Of a stretch of 64,000 nt of DNA, positions 5,766 through 59,561 are shown piece after piece. Every line of letters begins with the position of its first letter. Position 1 is the stretch's first letter. Under the pieces are notes generated by a model. The model did no database searches. It worked only from the letters and a program-made list of their open reading frames with translations, and was not told the DNA's origin. The stretch is from Atrina japonica. Lineage: Eukaryota > Mollusca > Bivalvia > Pterioida > Pinnidae. The position numbers and the translations under genes were made by a program. The stretch lies in NCBI GenBank assembly GCA_030159075.1, contig BROG01000129.1:834501-898500 (forward strand). Reading direction: 5' to 3'.

Positions 5766-6623
5766 TGTTAATTTTGATACATTTTGTCTAATAAATCTTT
5801 TATATATTGATATTTCAATCAAGCCTCTCTTTTTTATTACATTTTGAGCTAAAACTCAATCTGACTATATAAGATAAATATGACCTGGCACGTTGTGTAG
5901 GGTCATCAACGACACTGAAATAATACTAGCAATTATTGTATGTCTAGAATATTTCCACATCTTTAGAATTACGAAAACATTCATAGTAATCTTAGCAAAA
6001 CATGGACATAGCATGTTGTACATATGGGATCAACATGGCGGGTGTAAATACAAAATCAAAAACATGACAACTGTAGTCATGTCGTGAATAGTGTATTAAA
6101 TAAAAAAAAAATACAACATGATAGAAATATGACACTTAAGCTAGAGATATTCTTTCAAATACCATTGGGTAGTATGTCATTTTATTTTTATCTCGCATGA
6201 ACATTTGTTTCCAGAATGTTTCTGATGAGTTGAACGAAAGTATACAGACTTTTAAAAATTCCGTTAAATTAACGTTTGTATGCTAAATTTTCAGAAAAGA
6301 ATGTAGTGTTATGGATTATATTTGTCGCCCGTGAGTCTAAATCGTGGTTGGAAATTTTAAAATCATGGTATGAACATTATAGAATAGAAGAGAACAGAAA
6401 TATTTACTGAGGTCAAAACTTTTTTCAGGACCCCGCGACAATGAATATAAAACAAGTAAAGATTGAACTGGTCTCAACGATGCGTGACATAGGATATATA
6501 ATTATATCTTACTCGTCAATACTAACTTATTGTCCCTTTTTTGCAAAACTAAAACTTTGGTATTGTGTTTATGATATTTATATCAAGTAAAGAATCTTCA
6601 TACATATCATATCAAACTGATCT

Positions 6624-7900
6624 GCAATAATGTACTTGCATCGTATATTTAAACCAATATCTGCAATAATGTACTTACATCGTATATTTAAACCAATATC
6701 TGCAATAATGTACTTGCATCGTATATTTAAACCAATATCTGCAATAATGTACTTGCATCGTATATTTAAACCAATATCTGCAATAATGTACTTGCATCGT
6801 ATATTTAAACCAATATCTGCAATAATGTACTTGCATCGTATATTTAAACCAATATCTGCAATAATGTACTTGCATCGTATATTTAAACCAATATCTGTAA
6901 TAATGTATTTACATCGTATATTTAAACCAATATCTGCAATAATGTACGTACATCGTATATTTAAACCAATATCTGTAATAATGTATTTACATCGTATATT
7001 TAAACCAATATCTGCAATAATGTACTTACATCGTATATTTAAACCAATATCTGTAATAATGTACTTACATCGTATATTTAAACCAATATCTGTAATAATG
7101 TACTTACATCGTATATTTAAACCAAAATCTGTAATAATGTATTTACATCGTATATTTAAACCAATATCTGCAATAATACTTACATCGTATATTTAAACCA
7201 ATATCTGTAATAATGTACTTACATCGTATATTTAAACCAATATCTGTAATAATGTACTTACATCGTATATTTAAACCAATATCTGTAATAATGTACTTGC
7301 ATCGTATATTTAAACCAATATCTGCAATAATGTACTTGCATCGTATATTTAAACCAAAATCTGTAATAATGTACTTACATCGTATATTTAAACCAATATC
7401 TCCAATAATGTATTTACATCGTATATTTAAACCAATATCTGCAATAATGTACTTACATCGTATATTTAAACCAATATCTGCAATAATGTACTTACATCGT
7501 ATATTTAAACCAATATCTGTAATAATGTACTTACATCGTATATTTAAACCAATATCTGTAATAATGTACTTACATCGTATATTTAAACCAATATCTGTAA
7601 TAATGTACAATATTTAAACCAATATCTGTAATAATGTACTTACATCGTATATTTAAACCAATATCTGTAATAATGTATTTACATCGTATATTTAAACCAA
7701 TATCTGCAATAATGTACTTACATCGTATATTTAAACCAATATCTGTAATAATGTACTTACATCGTATATTTAAACCAATATCTGTAATAATGTACTTACA
7801 TCGTATATTTAAACCAATATCTGTAATAATGTACTTACATCGTATATTTAAACCAATATCTGTAATAATGTACTTACATCGTATATTTAAACCAAAATCT
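6624..7900. repeat. 39-bp minisatellite, about 33 units
   Basis: Units contain 'aatgtacttacatcgtatat' followed by ttaaaccaatatctgtaat, repeated from about 6624 to 7900. Variation is limited to a few positions (cttgc/cttac/tttac, tgcaa/tgtaa, atatct/aaatct). A 2-bp deletion near 7168 and an 11-13-bp deletion near 7600 break the period. Because 39 is a multiple of three, frames stay open over hundreds of bases on both strands (for example the repeated peptide MYLHRIFKPISAI), with no other sign of a gene. The array ends exactly where a MITE begins. Confidence 0.97.
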
Positions 7901-13555: not shown

Positions 13556-16500
13556 TCAAGATGACACAGGTACACTCTCCTTTTCCAAAGATTCAGTGGA
13601 CTCTATTTCTTTAGAATCAGGTTCTTGATTTTCTTTATTTTGTTTCTTTTTTAATTTTCCAGCTTTAAGATCAGCTATCTCTTTTTGTCTCTCTTCTTCT
13701 TCTTTCTGTATTTCATTAAGTTTGACTTGTCTTTCTTTCTCCTCTTTTTCAAGATCTTCTTGTAGTTCCTTCCTCCACTGTGCAGTGAAAATATGGAATA
13801 CATTTTCAGATAAAATCCTTAAGGCAGTAAAATTATTTAATTTAAAGTTTAAACAGGGACACTAAAAGAGACAGTAAAATTATTTAATTCAAAGTTTAAA
13901 CGGGCATTAAATGCCACTGCTAACCAAATGTATTTTATCTTCATGCTTGTGATCTGTAGAAATTATTCTATCAATCATTTAAGGACATTTCTTATGTTAA
14001 AAGAAAATTGAATGTTGAAATAAAATAAAAAAACAATGAATACATGTCTCAAACAAATGACTTTAAGAATACATACTACAATGTATAAACATCCTGGAAT
14101 TATTTCACTTATTCTCTAAAATTAAATAATTCAAAATCAAATAAAGCTATTATTCATAATGTTATGTATGATCATTGTTATATTGAACACAGATTACCAA
14201 GAATTTACATAGGAGTGTCCTTTTTTAAAGTGGAATTGACTGGACCATTTGTGTTTGAATAGCAAATCAGAGTGTTAGTGAACTGGGTGTGGTAAATGAA
14301 CTGGTTGTAGCACATGAACTGGATGTAGCAAGTGAACCAGGTGTAGGAAGTTAAATGATTGTAGTTTCGAGTTCAAGACCATTCATAAGACTTCTATCAA
14401 GTGAACGTAAAGTTGCCAAGTACTTGTAGCTGTCATGGGTTAGAATTTCAAACTGACATACTGTATCACATCAGGAGTAAATGGGGATCTCCCTGGACAG
14501 TGGTTAGAGTATCACACTTTAAACCATAAAGTCTCTTACAGATTAGAGTCCCACTGGAACCTAAGCATATTTTGAGACCTTTCAGGCCGGGGCATAAAAA
14601 TCGGGATAACTCACATAGTTCCTATAGCTAGTGACATCTTCATCTTGGTCATGTTGGTGTCATGTAAATATCCAGAAATTAAACCAAGCCGGAGCTTACT
14701 GGATACAAACTGAGTTTTTGAATTCTATTTAATTACAAACCTGATCCTCAACTATCCTTCGCAGATCAAAACTGGTTCTTTTGTTGAAGTTAACAGGTGG
14801 CTCATACAAAGCTGTTGCCAACAAAATCTCTTCTCTGTAATTAAATACAAATTGTCCAATCATTACAACAGCACTTATAATTCTTTTATTTAAACAATGA
14901 CATAAACTGTCTTTGTCAAAAGAATTTTTTAGATTGATAGGAAGCAAATCACTTTCTTATTATCTAGAAGTAAATTTAATTTTTCAAATCTCCTAGCTTT
15001 TCAAAACAAAAACAAAATAACAGATTTTTATGTCCTGACTCCTTACTGCCAGAAACGATCATTTTAAAACTTTTTTGCATTTTCTTTTTTTGTTTGTTTG
15101 AACAATAACTTTGGTATTATGTTTACAATATTTTATTTAAAAATAAAAAACTTGTCGGAAAACAAACTAGATGATCAGGATAGTATAATCAAATGACAGG
15201 TGTCGCTTACTTTAGTGATGTCCTTGCAGGATTGTTTTTGACAGGAGTACGAGGTGTAATTGCTTGCTTTGATCTGGCAGAATACTGGGACTTGTCCTTT
15301 TTTAAGGCTGGCATATAAGGATCCACAGGTGGTGGTAATGGAGGAAGGTATATTTGTGATAATCCTGTAAATGAAGTCAGAAAATATTTGGAATATGATA
15401 TTTGGAATGTATAAAGTCCAATATGTGGAATATAATATTTGGAATGTAAAGACAAAAATCAGTTGATAATTACCATGCATGTGTTTCAAATGATAATTAT
15501 AATGCACATGTAATTAGATAGTAGTATTTTAGTTTAGAATAAACATTACGATACACATCTGTAATATTTTTGTGAAAAAAACAAAACAGCATCTCAAAGC
15601 TGAGGTGCGCAATAATATCTTTGATAACCAATAAACAAGAAAATATTAAATATACACTTAATATGTTAATTTTGAACTACTTTCAAAATTACATATATTT
15701 TTGTATACATTTAGTTAAAATAATTCCTAAAAATCTAAGTAGATCCACTATATCATTAATTACAAAATGACAACAAGGGTGTGTAAAAATTGCTCTCAGT
15801 TTCACAACTTATATGATGTTTACAACAGTACATACAGTACAGACTGGTGTTGAACATGTACAGATATCATAATTATCCTGTATTTGCAGACATGTATCCA
15901 TATAACTAGCAGCATCATTCCATTATTCATTACCACCGTGTATAGCTCAAATTACATACAAAACTAAACTGTAGTCCTGGACCTCATTATTCAATAGATA
16001 CCAATTCTCACATTTAAACACTGACCATATCAGTATCACAACTTTTATAATATTTTGTATAGAATGTATGTTATAGCTACACACTAGATTCTTCACACAT
16101 TAAAATACAGATACAATACAAGGGGCATGTGATGCTTAATTCATTATATCATAAGTACTGACCTGCAGCTATTTTGTATCCTATTGTCTGAGGTATCATC
16201 TGCATTGATTTAGAAAGAAGACTCTCAAGGTCTGTGTGAACCTGAAACAACAGAATCACATGATATTGCATTTGTTTGACTCCGCACGATTTTAAACATA
16301 CTTAATAATTTACAATACACAGTTAATGTAAAATTTGACAATAAACTGTTCATATAAAGTTAAACAATACACTGTTCATGTAAAATTTAACAATACACTG
16401 TTCATGTCAAACTTTATAGATTTTACACCATTTCAGCATCTCTGTCCAACATTAAGATAATTATCAGGGGTAGAATTTCAAGCACTTCTGTCTCAGTCGG

Positions 16501-19500
16501 ACTACTTGGAAACAAATTTTACTAGTCTTTTGGCAAATTCACTAGTCCAAAAGTCTTACAACAAATTACCAATCGGGCAGGTATATACACAACTGGTACC
16601 TCAGATTACCCAACTTATCTATTTTTGTGTTTTATACTCATGAGTCAAAACAACTTTGATTTTCTTAGTTTATGTTTGTGAAAATAAATTTAAAGAGCAC
16701 CCTGAGTGAACAATGAAAGTTTCTGTATTTATAGAACTCATTGTTCTAAGAAAACCTAGAAAAAAAGAACCTGATCAAATTCGGTAGTCGTGTTCTCGAG
16801 ATATTGACCGCCAAAGTGAGCAAATTTAAATGCTTTCGAAAAACTAATTAAGAATTCATTCCACTTCCAGTAAACTTGTGAGTTACACTTTGACTTCAGG
16901 GAATGGCCTTAGGATGACTACTGGTATGGCAGAAATTAAAAGTGGACGGGAAAGCGAGTCATATTCACCGTTGGTAAAATCACAAAATTTACCAAATAAA
17001 TAATCATTTTGACACTTTTAAAATATAATAAATAATTTTATCTAAATGTAGTCATATAATGAACATTGTTTTGGCTTTTTCAGTGTATCACATTTACGGA
17101 CAGTCGGACTTGCGGACTACTGCTAATTTCAAACCCTGTAATTACAAAGTACATATATTTCAAAAAACCTGTTAACAAGTATTCAGAATAACAATATACC
17201 TGTTCTGACAAGATATAAAGAATACCAATATACCTGTTCTGAAAACGTATAAAGAATACCAATATACCTGTTCTGACAATGTATAAAGAATACCAATATA
17301 CCTGTTCTGACAACGTATAAAGAATACCAATATACCTGTTCTGACAACATATAAAGAATACCAATATACCTGTTCGTATGACAATAACGTTCTGACAATA
17401 TATAAAGAATACCAATATACCTGTTCTGACAATGTATAAAGAATACCAATATACCTGTTCTGACAATATATAAAGAATACCAAAATACCTATTCTGACAA
17501 TGTATAAAGAATACCAATATACTTGTTCTGACAATGTATAAAGAATACCAAAATACCTGTTCTGAAAACGTATAAAGAATACCAAAATACCTGTTCTGAC
17601 AATGTATACAGAGTATCAACATACCTGTCCAGTGTTGACAAAGTATACAGAATACAACATACCTGTCCAACTTTAAGTGCCTCCAGGACTCTATCATCCT
17701 TTTCCATAGAGTGAGCTCGAAGAAGGACATTCCAAGCAGCAGTCTTCATCCCCTCCCTATTTTTATCATTGGCCAAACAGCGACAGATCTTAACCAATGA
17801 CTGAATAGATCCGAATCTGATTCTCCAGCTCCAGTCATTTGGTCCTGTTAAAGGGGGATAATTAAAGAGTGTCTTTAAAGCATTGGTATGCCTATTAGAA
17901 ATAAAATGTAATTTTAATTCATATTTCATAGAAAATATTTAAGTATTTGACATATAATAACAAAGTCAAGCAAACCAGTCAATTCATTACTGATTATTAA
18001 TGTTATTGTAACATTTCATTATTGATTATTAATGTTATTGTATCAATTCACTATCACTTCATTACTGATTATTAATGTTATTGTATCACTTCATTACTGA
18101 TTATTAATGTTATTGTATCTTTCAAAAGTGACATAATCTTGGACACACTTTTTATTATTTCATATATATAGGCATTTCTCACAAGTATACATCTGACTCT
18201 ATAATCGACAAACATATTCATTTATCTGTTCAATATTAGGATAAAATAGTTATAGATATGTTATTGTACGCTAACTTTGTACCTACAAATACAGGCACCT
18301 ACAGGGACAAAGGTAATCAAAGTAATTGTAAAAGATATGTACCTTTGTACTTACAGGTAATCAAAGTGATTGTAAAAGATATGTACTTTTGTACCTACAG
18401 GTAATCAAAGTGATTATAAAAGATATGTACCTTTGTACTTACAGGTAATCAAAGTGATTGTAAAAGATATGTACTTTTGTACCTACAGGTAATCAAAGTG
18501 ATTGTAAAAGATATGTACTTTTGTACCTACAGGTAATCAAAGTGATTGTAAAATATATGTACTTTTGTACCTACAGGTAATCAAAGTGATTATAAAAGAT
18601 ATGTACCTTTGTACTTACAGGTAATCAAAGTGATTGTAAAAGATATGTACTTTTGTACCTACAGGTAATCAAAGTGATTGTAAAAGATATGTAACTTTGT
18701 ACATACAGGTAACCAAAGGAATTGTAAAAGTTATGTACCTTTGTACTTACAGGTAACCAAAGGAATTGTAAAAGTTATGTACTTTTATATGTACAGATAA
18801 TCAAAGTAATTGAAAAGGCTATCTCTCATATAATTTTGTAAAATTTCTAATTTACAGTAAATTTTATGACAAATTATTTCTTTTCACTGTAAAAATATAT
18901 TAATTGCAATGTTTTTAAAACTGTCTTCAGTTTTAAAGGTGATAAGTAAAATAAAACAACAACAATATCGGTTACATCCTGATATTTTCTAAAAAAAATG
19001 ATGTATTGTGGGACCTTTAGATATTTATATCAATTAAAATTGATCCTGATATGATGATATGTTCCATTCCACAAGTAATTTATACAAATCTTTAATTCTG
19101 ATTTTGCCTATCTGACACTCTAAGATAGACTACTACTTATAATTGTTCAATGTCGTACATTAGCTGTTAAACCAACTACCAGTGAAAGGGAGATAATTCA
19201 TAGGTTTACCTATCAAAAGGCAATTTTATTGGTTAACCATTCAGTTTTGGCAATAGCAATAATAAATAAATATTTATCACTACGACACTTAATCTCAGTT
19301 CTTCAAAAAGCAATGTAAACTCATACCTCTAAAAAGTGAAATTACCTGAATCTCGCAGTGTATTAACAATTGATCTATAATGCTAGTTCTGTTTTGTTTG
19401 TTTGTTTGTTTTTTTTTATATTGTTATATGACCATTAAGAGTTTTTCCATTACAAAGAAACTTGTTCAGCTTTTTGTAAAAGTGCTACAAATTTTATTTG

Positions 19501-22600: not shown

Positions 22601-25600
22601 GTGGATGTGTATCTAACTAAATCAATTGTGTGAAGACATTCTTTACCATTTTAGCCTTTCCTCTTCTGAGACATATTGGTTACTCTTTGAATTGAATATC
22701 GTAAACTAAATAATGTGCATGTGAGGTCATCCCATGAATTGAGTATTTCCAAAACATGTATAGGGAAGTGAGAACTGGTTATGTGTTGATTATCAACATT
22801 TTTGCTGCATCAGGCAATCATATTGGTACTTGAACATATAAATGATATGGCCAAACAAATAAAGTATGCATATCAACTACTGCAGAATGTATTTTAGTTA
22901 TATAGAATGGCCAATATGTTTATACTGGCATAAACTAATGGACAAGTGAACTAAACATTGAAATTCAAATGGCTGTTTGATTGAGTCAACTTCTTAATTT
23001 TGGACTTCAAAGGGGTGACCCCTGACCATTTGAGAGAGGAAAATGTTTGAGAAGAGTCAAAACTGACTGCCTAGAGGAGGTGACTACTTAAAAGAGGTGA
23101 CTGCATGTACAGAAGACTGGTTATATAACATGTATGCAGAGTATGTTTCTGAGTGGATAAAAAGATATTTTACTGCAGTAAACTACTGGTTAAAATAGGA
23201 ATTATATGATCTCCTAAAAAGACAAAGACATTTTTGTTGTTAGTTTATCTAGAGGTTAATATTGGACTTGAATGAACTCAGTAGCTGAATATATACGATA
23301 TATTTTACCTGAATATATACGACATATTACCTGAATATATATGATATATATTACCTGAATATATATGATATATATTACCTGAATATATACGATATATATT
23401 ACCTGTATATATATGATATATTTTACCTGAATATATATGATATATATTGCCTGTATATAGATATGATATATATTACCTGAATATGTGTGAAATATATTAC
23501 ATGAATATCTATGATATATATTACCTGATTTACCTTACCCTTAATTCATAGGTAAGAAGAACCCTAACTCACTCTCTCATTCTCTCACAAAAAGGTATAT
23601 CCAGGCACAATCAAAACTAATTTATCATTCAATATCAGTTAAATGTTTTATTAAATATTATATGCTTTCCTGTATATAAGAGCCTGTTCTGTGCAGTTAG
23701 GATATCAGGGCAACCCTGGCCTCATTTATTGGTATGTCTGGGTACCAAATAATAAATAAAAGAACCTTAACATACAAAGGCATACTATATCTTTGTCAGA
23801 TCAGCTACTGATTAATTCAAAACAAATAAGGGTTTCCTAGCTGCCAAAGATACCTTCTATTGCCAGTTAGGGCTTATATGATTTCTAACAAACAAATAAT
23901 ATATCTTAACAATATATTTCTAAATGGAAAAGTCATGTCTATATAACGTTAAGGCAGTGGTTAATATGGTAAAATAAATATCTATATCTAAGTTGTAACA
24001 TATATGTGGTTATATGATAGGATTTAATACTAAATATTAAACTAAGCCCTTCCCAATGTTTTGAACAAATACATGAAATGTTTAAAACTGATAAACATGT
24101 GTATCACTTCAAAGTTTCAATTTTCATGGTTTTTTAAAATTATTTTTATTCATTGAATTAATTGAATTAATTATAATGTATTTTTACAAGAAAAACTTAT
24201 TATGTGATATTTCCAATTAATTAAACCATAGGGGAGGTTTATTGAAAAGAAGAAAGATTATACTGAGCCATGATGATTGACATCTCTGAAATTGATACAT
24301 GCGATGTATGACTTAATAAGAAATTTTAAGAAGCAGCTAATTAAGAATGTTTCTATACAAACATAGCATACCATTCTTCTTGTAATCAATTTGGCTGACT
24401 ACAGCTGCAAATATTGAATGCATATTTATGAAACGTACTAACACAACAAACCTCAACATGTATTAATAGAAGCTTTTGATATTTATGCTATTCTGATTAA
24501 GGCTTAAGCCAAATGACCTATCAACAAGTGTCTGACACATGGCTGTCCATGAGCTTTTTTGACGTACCCCATTCGATTGTATCATGTCATATTCACACAT
24601 GTCTTTGACAGACCATTTGATTGTGACGTCATAATAAAAAAGTTTGCCAAATGGTGTCGTGTCGGGCATTTGGCGATAGGTCAATCCCAGACAATCCATT
24701 GGACTGTAACAGCAAAAATGTGACAGATGTGACAAAGGGTCTAGCATATTAAAAGCCACATCACAAAATCATGTGTAGGTGTTGGCAACACTCTGTTACT
24801 GTGATGGCATCACTTACAACTACTGCGTTTGATGTACTAGATGATACTGTGTAAACAATATATGTCTCTCTATACAAGGTGATATAGGTGCATAATGGGA
24901 TCAAATTGTACAGAGTATACCATATAAATAGCAAATCAATATTAGACCAATGCTAGTAGCCAAATCTTCATGTATAGCCAATTATAACAGTGATTGTGTT
25001 TTAATTAGACTGAAATGCCATTACAATATATTTTTCCTTCGAAAGGATTCAAAGGAGGTGAATGAGGAATCAAGTGCACTTGGCTAGTCCAGTTTTACTG
25101 ACATCGCAATACAAACATGGGAAATATAACCTCTGTGAAGATGCTGATTATAATCCATTATTGATTAACTATAGTGATATTGGCCTAATACAGACTTTTT
25201 TTGGCCAAACAAAATGAAATTCAAAACTCTGCCAATATTGAAAAACTCAAATTTCGTATTGGTCCAGTTAATCAATAATGTGTTCATTAATCAGTGATTT
25301 CCATATAGGCCTACTTATTGCACCTTGGTCTGTTGTATTGACCTTCAACTTCACCTCAGGCCAATACGACAGACCTCGACGTAATAACTAGGCCAATATG
25401 ACAGACCTCGACGTAATAACTAGGCCAATATGACAGACCTCGACGTAATAACTAGGCCAATATGACAGACCTCGACGTAATAACTAGGCCAATATGACAG
25501 ACCTCGACGTAATAACTAGGCCAATATGACAGACCTCGACGTAATAACTAGGCCAATATGACAGACCTCGACGTAATAACTAGGCCAATATGACAGACCT

Positions 25601-27481
25601 CGACGTAATAACTAGGCCAATATGACAGACCTCGACGTAATAACTAGGCCAATATGACAGACCTCGACGTAATAACTAGGCCAATATGACAGACCTCGAC
25701 GTAATAACTAGGCCAATATGACAGACCTCGACGTAATAACTAGGCCAATATGACAAACCTCGACGTAATAACTAGGCCAATATGACAGACCTCGACGTAA
25801 TAACTAGGCCAATATGACAGACCTCGACGTAATAACTAGGCCAATATGACAGACCTCGACGTAATAACTAGGCCAATACGACAGACCTCGACGTAATAAC
25901 TAGGCCAATACGACAGACCTCGACGTAATAACTAGGCCAATACGACAGACCTCAACGTAATAACTAGGCCAATACGACAGACCTCGACGCAATAACTAGG
26001 CCAATACGACAGACCTCGACGCAATAACTAGGCCAATACGACAGACCTCGACGCAATAACTAGGCCAATACGACAGACCTCGACGCAATAACTAGGCCAA
26101 TACGACAGACCTCGACGTAATAACTAGGCCAATACGACAGACCTCGACGTAATAACTAGGCCAATATGGAAATCACTGATTAATAAATCTATAGTAGAAT
26201 GATATTACCTGTCACAGACCTGGAAGTACCCGGAAGAGATCCGCCTTCCACTTTTGGGCGGATTCCTCTGGTTAAACTATGCAGAATTTTCATAGCAGCC
26301 AGGTTAGTTTTAGCTGCCTCTGACAAAATCTGCATTGCCACCATAGTGTCTATCCTGAAATGTTGGAAATCCATAGGTAAGTTTATGTACAGAAATGATT
26401 TAGATTTTTAATTTAAAAATGACTATAGATTTCTGATCATCTTTTGTTACAAGCAAAAATAACTCGAGTCAATAAGAACATGGCACATTAGATATGTAAA
26501 TGGTCGCAACATGAAAAACAATTGTAAATCCTAAACGGGATAGGACCAGGTGTCCGGAAGGAGTCAATGTCCACTGCCAGCATGCCACGCTCTTCGTAAA
26601 TGTAATATGAAAACCTCTCAAGTTCAATGAAAAGGTCAAGTTCAGTGAAATAAAAATTGTAAACCACAGTACATAATGTTAGTATATGTACCTGACTCAT
26701 TAGAATAATCTTGTGGCAGCTGGCATGATACACTTTTTAAAATGTGGACAAAAGTGGGTTGCAATGAAAAATAATCGACATGGTGATAACCACGGTAAAG
26801 TCTCTATAAACAGGTAGCTTCTTATAATAAGGTAAGGGGAAAGATGATCTTCATTAAGCTATTGAATTTTCTACATACCAAACTATCACATTTGTGTGAG
26901 ACGAGAGTATTTTTGCAACTTTTTTATCAATTTATTTACATCTTTCAAAAGTATCTGAAATTCGCTTTCATATAAAAAAAATGCCGTGTAACTAACTGTT
27001 TGTGGTTTTTTAAATATCCCTATGGGGAATATAACAAATTCAAGTTTCATCTTTTTTTGATGAAAGTTTACTAAATTTACATATCAATTTGGCAGTATTA
27101 ATGAATATATCATCAACGACTTACCAGTTCTCATTGGCAAGTCCCATACCACAAGTTGCAAGTGCTTGTAAAGCTTCTGCTAGACCACCACCTAGGTGGT
27201 TTGTACACCGCCACACATCCAAAGCATGCCACAATGTGGGACTGAGGTCATGAACACTACTACTAATTGCTCCTGCACTGTGAGCAGAAAATGAATGCTC
27301 CCTGGTGTCCTGTTTAGTACCCGATCCTTGAGTTGTTCTTGTTGTTCTACTGTATTGCTGATAAAGAATATGTTATATGTTATCAAATTGCGCTGGTATA
27401 ATCCAAATTATATGAAATATTTCCTAACTTCTATAAAAAGGGGGAAATGATACAGTTAATTTACCATTTTCCAACAAAAAG

Positions 27482-41865: not shown

Positions 41866-42995
41866 TCAGATACCAAAGTATAAATCAATAAAATGTCCAG
41901 GAAACGGGTTTTGCAGTGCCTAGACATCAACCATCTTCTTCATAACACCGTCACATGTTCTTGTGCATCATCTACCTTCAATTATGATCCTATCGGGCAT
42001 GTCATCACCGGCAACGTTTCTATTGTTGAAATGAAAACCTCAAAAATCGTATTTTAAGAGGTCCTAAAGACCGAGAAGCCTGTTCCTTTACTTGGCGTCA
42101 GAATTTCAGTTTAGTTATGGTTCTTTCGAATATCATGTCAGATGATGGGCCAAACATGAAGACGTGGAACCAGACACTTTGTCTGAATGGCTTACAGCTG
42201 TACGATGTTTGATAAAATCTCGTATTCGAAAACTTAAAGGGAGTATGAAAACACGTTATCCCTCTGTATTTAGTGATTCAGAAGTAGGAGCTGAACTGGA
42301 TAGATTACATGACCAATATGTACTGGTCCCAGCAGACATAGCAGTTGTTATTTTTAAGGCACATTACTACATACCTATACTCCTTACACAACTATTTCAC
42401 ATAGAAAATTAAAAGAAAGACTTTTTAGCATCATACACAGCTGTTTTTTCACTAAAGGTGGTACCCAAAAATTTAAATTCCAGCGATTGGTTATCATGAT
42501 ACTTATTTTGTCAAACACCATTCTGATTTTACACATAAATACCCTGAAGTTAATATAAAACATGTTGGAATTTCTAATAAACAATATATTTGTAATGTTC
42601 AGAGACGTGGTCTTTCAACATACTGTCGGCATTCCTCTGGGAATAAATTGTGCCCCTTCATTGGTCGAACTGTTCCTTTATTCATACGAACCAGATTTCA
42701 TTCAGGAACTGCTGAATCAAAAGAAAAAAAAGCTAGCGGTGTCCTTTAATTTCAGATTTAGATATATCGACGATTTTTTTGTCAATTAATAATGACAATA
42801 TTCATACATATGTCAATGCAATATATTCAAGCGAAAAAAAATAAAGATACAGCATACATTTAACTTACTATAGACATATACGGGAAATTGGCAACTAAGC
42901 TATACGACAAACGCGATGATTTCGACTTTCCCATCGTAAATGTTCCACATTTAAGTAGTAATATCCCACAGTCATCCGCATATTTTTTGTTAGGA
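41866..42995 (+). pseudogene. Penelope-like element, internally deleted (copy B), with 5' terminus
   Basis: The only copy here that keeps a 5' end: 41866-41898 is the exact 33-bp inverse of the 3' terminus of the copy in SLC22 intron 1 (49393-49425). An N-terminal ORF part follows (CSCASSTFNYDPIGHVITG, then RRWAKHEDVEPDTLSEW at about 42140). At about 42370 some 470 bp are missing compared with that copy, so the frame jumps to the TTIPH-like region. RT motifs remain as decayed GIPLGINCAPSLVELF and FRYIDDFF (about 42760). It is truncated near 42995, where another dispersed repeat begins. Confidence 0.8.

Positions 42996-45946: not shown

Positions 45947-59561
<13,615 letters not shown>

What the first reader, a model, noticed from the sequence alone, without database searches (positions are those of the whole stretch)
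17183..17850. Minisatellite grown out of a splice-donor site: about 13 decoy 5' splice sites after exon 11
On the coding strand the array is a tandem chain of ..cag|gtat.. units whose first members are identical to the true donor of exon 11 (ggacag|gtatgttg). The duplication therefore began at the exon-intron border and left a ladder of alternative donors every 34 bp, each with an acceptor-like ttgtcag just before it. Use of a decoy would add about 11 codons per unit; the frames are largely open, so the protein could be lengthened without early stops.
Basis: partly seen in the sequence, partly recalled or inferred. Interest (0 to 1): 0.75.

Follow-up and report, generated by a model that had tools for sequence, protein, structure and literature searches.

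The report
Minisatellite seeded on a splice donor
In a bivalve-like gene (TMEM232), the DNA at the end of one exon has been copied over and over into the intron, leaving about 13 look-alike splice sites, most of which would wreck the protein if used; this kind of repeat is known from lancelets, and a second, cleaner case turned up in another gene of the same genome.

Summary
The array is real. Exon 11 (17844-17663, minus strand) of a complete 15-exon TMEM232 gene is followed directly by 14 tandem units carrying 13 extra donor-like GTs. The first 38 nt of intron 11 are themselves unit 1, and a 15-mer spanning the border (7 exon + 8 intron nt) recurs 38 nt downstream, so growth from the border is well supported. 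Homologues keep the plain exon 11/12 junction (84 of 86). This matches lancelet "mirages" and the human IFI6 minisatellite, so the kind is known. New here: a second, cleaner case in the same genome (furry-like gene: 12 nearly identical CAG/AAG|GTAAGT donors, units with up to 25 exact exon nt), and a genome-wide excess of tandem AGGTAAGT triples (1761 matches against 253-824 for five same-composition controls; singles not enriched). Array-level support for that excess is modest, and the TMEM232-type donor shows only 1.6-fold. No RNA evidence was available. Most likely a tolerated, lineage-specific repeat whose first donor is used.

The parts
17663..17844 (-). Exon 11 of 15 of TMEM232 (182 nt), ending ..LEALKVGQ
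   Evidence: Gene model reads through as 894 aa with one stop; Pfam TMEM232 1.1e-23 over exons 10-11
17655..17669 (-). 15-mer TGGACAGGTATGTTG across the exon 11 / intron 11 border (7 exon + 8 intron nt), true donor at 17662
   Evidence: Exact repeat 38 nt downstream
17169..17662 (-). Tandem array of 14 units (38, 34 x6, 51, 34 x5, 31 nt) forming the start of intron 11
   Evidence: TRF; unit dissection
17617..17631 (-). Decoy donor 17624 with the second copy of the border 15-mer; same donor score as the true site; use would add 38 nt and frameshift
17585..17593 (-). Decoy donor 17590 (CAG|GTATTT), the only decoy that keeps frame and avoids stops (+24 residues)
17489..17491 (-). In-frame TAG that closes the protein's frame inside the array, the last three bases before decoy 17488
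17194..17593 (-). Decoy donors 17590, 17556, 17522, 17488, 17454, 17420, 17369, 17335, 17301, 17267, 17233, 17199, none with +5 G
16163..16241 (-). Exon 12, begins VHTD..; canonical junction VGQ|VHTD

Best explanation
A lineage-specific minisatellite of the 'mirage' type. A slippage or unequal-exchange event duplicated a short stretch across the exon 11 / intron 11 border of TMEM232 (7 exon nt plus about 31 intron nt). The copies then expanded by ordinary tandem turnover, with the edge units left more divergent. Splicing most likely keeps using the 17662 donor. The decoys are tolerated: 12 of 13 lack the +5 G (one of these is also AA|GT, one TAG|GT), and 12 of 13 decoy products would carry premature stops. 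Shown: position, homology of unit 1, the border 15-mer, frame outcomes, absence from the relatives found. Inferred: direction of copying, use of 17662, decay of decoy transcripts.
For: Complete TMEM232 model. Unit 1 = intron start; 0 of 2000 shuffles; other 13 introns at most 6 against 19. Border 15-mer repeated 38 nt away, the only exact 15-mer repeat within 100 nt that spans a splice border of the gene. Of 11 arrays tested (10 inside the gene, one just upstream; dinucleotide runs left out) only this one touches a splice border. Exon end conserved as VGQ|V; 84 of 86 homologues have no insert at the junction. 14 of 15 related exon-11 ORFs run into intron, none with a 5-residue word of the array peptide; no significant protein match to the array peptide. 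Frame table. Second case in the same genome with up to 25 exact exon nt per unit. Lancelet mirages reported not to disturb regular splicing (PMC3087553, PMC3902484; passages read).
Against: Only 7 exon nt are shared, so the seeding argument rests on one 15-mer and the unit-1 homology. No RNA was examined, so use of 17662 is inferred. The decoys are not intrinsically dead: CAG|GTATAT scores above 3 of the other 13 real donors of the gene by the recalled matrix and 7 of 13 by the gene's own small matrix, 17624 is as strong as the true site, and predicted folding does not favour the true site.
Confidence: 0.75

Rival explanations
1. Decoys act as a dosage dial: the full-strength 17624 site (and some others) is used part of the time, producing frameshifted transcripts that are degraded, so array length tunes TMEM232 output.
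For: 17624 equals the true donor in all three scores; 0 of 1183 GT sites in the other 13 introns reach it. 12 of 13 decoys give stops at least 284 nt before the last junction. Folding gives the true site no advantage. The human IFI6 minisatellite does yield alternative mRNAs (passage in PMC4526556).
Against: No RNA data; published lancelet mirages are reported not to disturb regular splicing; no evidence of selection for the array.
Confidence: 0.14
2. One reading: decoys lengthen the protein as regular isoforms.
For: Decoy 17590 would insert 24 residues in frame; the consensus unit is open in all three sense frames.
Against: 12 of 13 decoys break the protein; the junction has no insert in 84 of 86 homologues; the array peptide has no significant match.
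Confidence: 0.05
3. An ordinary intronic minisatellite that abuts the donor by chance; the shared bases reflect the common donor motif.
For: The region is rich in minisatellites, and donor-like units are not enriched among 52 local array rows (13 against 9.6 +/- 2.7 in shuffles, 26 of 200 shuffles reach 13).
Against: Homology covers the whole 38-nt unit 1, not just the donor motif, and the 15-mer includes 7 exon nt.
Confidence: 0.06

Closest known systems
Lancelet 'mirages' (Adh3, globins BflGb6/BflGb9, TnC, PGBD5)
   Same: Minisatellite-like tandem copies of an exon-intron border, many units with AG/GT, edge units excluded from homogenisation, gene otherwise intact (PMC3087553 and PMC3902484, passages read)
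   Different: Mollusc-like genome; in TMEM232 only 7 exon nt in the founding duplication; length variation between haplotypes and splicing not testable here
Human IFI6 (6-16, G1P3) splice-donor minisatellite (Turri et al. 1995)
   Same: A minisatellite at an exon end offering multiple splice donors
   Different: There two downstream repeat units are used as donors, giving three mRNA species (passage in PMC4526556; the 1995 paper itself is not held). Here 34-nt units shift frame and 12 of 13 decoys lead to stops; the 12-bp unit of IFI6 is recalled
Intron gain by tandem duplication of AGGT-containing sequence
   Same: Tandem copying around AG/GT sites (PMC4974935 and PMC3443670, search listing only)
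   Different: No new intron position here; an old intron's start was copied
Recursive splice sites
   Same: ttgtcag..acag|gtat juxtaposes acceptor-like and donor-like motifs (definition recalled)
   Different: The two are 5 nt apart, and donor to next acceptor is 29 nt in a 34-nt unit, too short for splicing by recalled limits; no functional test

Membership tests
Lancelet-type mirage | Tandem repeat whose unit spans an exon-intron border | tested here: met
   Border 15-mer repeated (7 exon + 8 intron nt) and unit 1 = intron start; the exon share is small. The furry-like array has up to 25 exact exon nt per unit
Lancelet-type mirage | Units carry AG/GT splice signals | tested here: met
   12 of 13 decoys AG|GT
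Lancelet-type mirage | Edge units diverged, core homogenised | tested here: met
   Identity to consensus: unit 1 0.74, unit 2 0.88, unit 14 0.79; units 3-7 and 9-13 0.91-1.00; unit 8 (with a 17-nt insert) 33 of 34 matching bases
Lancelet-type mirage | Length instability between haplotypes or cells | not testable with these tools
   Only one copy of the locus found in the genome held
Lancelet-type mirage | Regular splicing undisturbed | not testable with these tools
   No RNA data
IFI6-type splice-donor minisatellite | Repeat donors used in mRNAs giving protein isoforms | not testable with these tools
   Frame analysis argues against for 12 of 13 decoys

The most novel reading that the evidence does not exclude
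Splice donors are a recurrent seed of minisatellites across this bivalve-like genome. Many genes would carry ladders of full-strength, nearly identical donors (12 in the furry-like gene) from which the spliceosome must pick the exon-proximal one, a natural test of 5' splice-site choice and a route by which introns grow.
Probability: 0.4. Interest if true: 0.65.

Novelty: new member of a known kind. Interest (0 to 1): 0.48.

Why it matters
The border-spanning repeats that my paper searches turned up are in lancelets and one human gene. Finding two in one bivalve-like genome, one with a dozen nearly identical full-strength donors of which all but the first would break the reading frame, gives natural substrates for asking how the spliceosome chooses among equal neighbouring donors, and suggests a general way for introns to acquire repeats. 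For TMEM232, whose loss in mice causes male infertility with flagellar defects (PMC10296807, PMC11549365; titles and abstract starts in a search listing), array length could affect output if decoy 17624 is used.

Tried and rejected
Related array elsewhere: the only other genome hit (C59:70164, L002) is an unrelated 17-bp TATATTGTCAG-type array. Altered U1: 8 U1 hits (7 over the family cut-off), all with an ACTTACCTG 5' end; one (L030, below cut-off) has AAACTTACCTG instead of ATACTTACCTG. Folding as the discriminator of donors: none. A second border-seeded array in the same gene: the intron-8 array at 25358-26168 resembles the exon 8 end (13/15), but 87 of 20000 shuffles reach that score and 280 border-array pairs were compared, so it is not significant; one TA-rich pair (exon 3 donor against the 23285 array) ranked higher still, which shows the noise level. 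Donor motifs enriched among local minisatellites: no (13 of 52 rows, the TMEM232 array counted as two, against 9.6 expected). Acceptor-like TCAG sites: pyrimidine content 10-12 of 16, like real acceptors (9-16), but an in-array exon would be 5 nt and frame-breaking (inference). Whole-genome tandem triples: AGGTAAGT 1761, its reverse 253; GAGTATGA 586, reverse 658; GTAGATGA 824, reverse 697; AGGTATGT 2656, reverse 1669. So the TMEM232-type donor shows only a 1.6-fold excess, and a non-donor 8-mer of another composition (TGTATGGA, 1669) comes close to the AGGTAAGT count. A search with AGGTGAGT and a paralog search with PF15877 did not complete.

Full report
Setting. The window lies in an 832-Mb genome of 2347 contigs (G000:C129). 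The minus strand carries a TMEM232 gene. I rebuilt it exon by exon: 15 exons from 37800 to 13556, 894 residues, one terminal stop, all 14 introns GT..AG. Pfam TMEM232 matches exons 10-11 at 1.1e-23. The protein is 75-78% identical to P0033 (Pinctada imbricata), P0034 (Ostrea edulis) and two unnamed database proteins, so the source is probably a pteriomorph bivalve (inference).

The array. Intron 11 begins with 14 tandem units (17662-17169): 38 nt, six of 34, one of 51 (34 plus a 17-nt insert), five of 34, one degenerate of 31. There are 13 decoy GTs between 17624 and 17199. The first unit, that is the intron start itself, aligns to the consensus at 29 of 39 columns; none of 2000 shuffles reaches its score, and no other intron start of the gene comes near (at most 6 against 19). 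The 15-mer TGGACAGGTATGTTG, 7 exon plus 8 intron nt, recurs 38 nt downstream and is the only exact 15-mer repeat within 100 nt that spans a splice border of this gene. Upstream of these 7 nt the exon and the end of unit 1 show no clear similarity (by eye). The exon end encodes V-G-Q, conserved in relatives, so the copying most likely ran from the exon border into the intron (inference). Of 11 arrays tested (10 in the gene, one just upstream; dinucleotide runs left out), this is the only one at a splice border.

Donor quality. By a recalled human donor matrix the true donor scores 9.79, decoy 17624 the same, eight decoys 5.99, two 5.72, 17488 4.10 and 17522 2.65. None of 1183 GT sites in the other 13 introns (20,139 nt) reaches 9.79, and 38 reach 5.99. 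Eleven of the gene's 14 real donors have G at +5; among decoys only 17624 does. Against the view that the rest are dead: 5.99 exceeds 3 of the 13 other real donors, and by the gene's own small matrix the common decoy exceeds 7 of 13. The U1 genes found in this genome have the usual 5' end. Predicted local folding gives the true donor no advantage.

Consequences. 34 is 1 modulo 3, so successive decoys cycle through frames. With exons 12-15 appended, 17624, 17556 and 17522 shift frame and stop in exon 12; 17488 and the 8 sites beyond meet the TAG at 17491-17489; only 17590 gives full length, with 24 extra residues. All 12 premature stops lie 284-619 nt before the last junction, so decay of such transcripts is expected (established rule, recalled).

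Relatives. Of 89 longer homologues, 86 cover the junction and 84 have no insert there; two frog proteins (P0115, P0116) have 10 extra residues, AEVNGPTNPF, unlike the array peptide, and some distant ones align only loosely around this place. Of 15 shorter database ORFs that hold the exon-11 end, 14 run past the border into intron for 7-76 residues and one continues into exon 12-like sequence; none of the 121 proteins fetched holds a 5-residue word of the array peptide. A search with the array peptide found 63 candidates and no significant match. The array is therefore probably recent, in this lineage; the source species itself seems absent from the protein collection. The first-stage test 'relatives with a wholly unrelated sequence at the border' is met, but it bears on age, not on origin.

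A second case. Searching the genome for three AGGTAAGT in tandem gave 1761 matches. Flanks could be read for four listed places, of which one (C1:3094557) is an AGGT simple repeat and was dropped. Of the three real arrays, one (C1:3854977) is unmistakable: 12 donors, ten CAG|GTAAGT and two AAG|GTAAGT, scores 12.62 and 12.46, spaced 44-48 nt. Each of the 11 decoys is preceded by a copy of the last 26 exon nt (20-25 of 26 identical, exact for up to 25) and followed by 18 intron nt that match at 15-18. The three exons around it match Pfam MOR2-PAG1_C at 1.5e-24 when joined across the array; naming it furry-like rests on that domain and recall. Use of any of the 11 decoys would meet an in-frame TAG at the seventh codon past the border. 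The other two arrays (C1:2906486, C1:3820036) showed no evident exon directly upstream (by eye).

Is it general? Single AGGTAAGT is not enriched over its reverse (31,777 against 34,627), but tandem triples are: 1761 against 253 (reverse), 586 and 658 (GAGTATGA and reverse), 824 and 697 (GTAGATGA and reverse). Matches are dominated by long arrays, so I also counted distinct arrays in contigs C1-C19 from the listings by hand: 15 for AGGTAAGT (simple repeat dropped), against 3, 8 and 9 for TGAATGGA, GAGTATGA and GTAGATGA (one-sided binomial 0.016 against the three together; 0.004 against the first and 0.105 against the second alone). AGGTATGT, the TMEM232 donor type, gives only 2656 against 1669 for its reverse; that reverse is a non-donor word of other composition and nearly as frequent as tandem AGGTAAGT. 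The 52 local minisatellite rows show no donor enrichment. So genome-wide seeding at donors is suggested, not shown.

Known or new. Lancelet 'mirages' are tandem copies of exon-intron borders, reported not to disturb regular splicing (PMC3087553, PMC3902484; passages read). The human IFI6 gene has a minisatellite offering multiple donors (PMC4526556 passage; the 1995 paper is not held). The kind is therefore known. Searches for such repeats in molluscs (15 of 35 papers listed, no paper) showed nothing that I recognised as the same, by titles and abstract starts only; that is not proof of absence.

Verdict. Observation largely right, seeding idea supported, isoform idea mostly wrong. The better story is the second, full-strength ladder and the possible genome-wide excess.

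Noticed in passing
G000:C1:3854977-3855480 (loci L048-L050): Second border-seeded array: 12 nearly identical CAG/AAG|GTAAGT donors in a furry-like gene (MOR2-PAG1_C), units with up to 25 exact exon nt; any decoy gives an early stop.
   Followed up: yes
23285-23528: Intron 8 array of about 24-bp units reading TTCAG|GTAATA at several junctions on the coding strand, like zero-length recursive splice sites; shares CAGGTAATAT with the exon 8 donor 2.7 kb upstream (not significant).
   Followed up: partly
25358-26168: 32-bp array starting 41 nt after the exon 8 donor; its unit matches exon 8 positions -20 to -6 at 13/15, not significant after correction.
   Followed up: partly
6620-7900: 39-bp array (33 copies) with 191-204 aa open frames on both strands and a GTAAGT..TTACAG motif in the consensus unit on the minus strand, beyond the 3' end of TMEM232.
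   Followed up: no
42100-42800, 47600-49000, 53450-54700: Three similar broken reverse-transcriptase-like reading frames (by eye, recalled motifs; three pieces, from the second and third places, gave no Pfam hit at 0.01).
   Followed up: no
49700-58700: Plus-strand exons of a transporter-like gene by eye; of two pieces scanned one matches MFS_1 at 4e-6, below the curated cut-off.
   Followed up: partly
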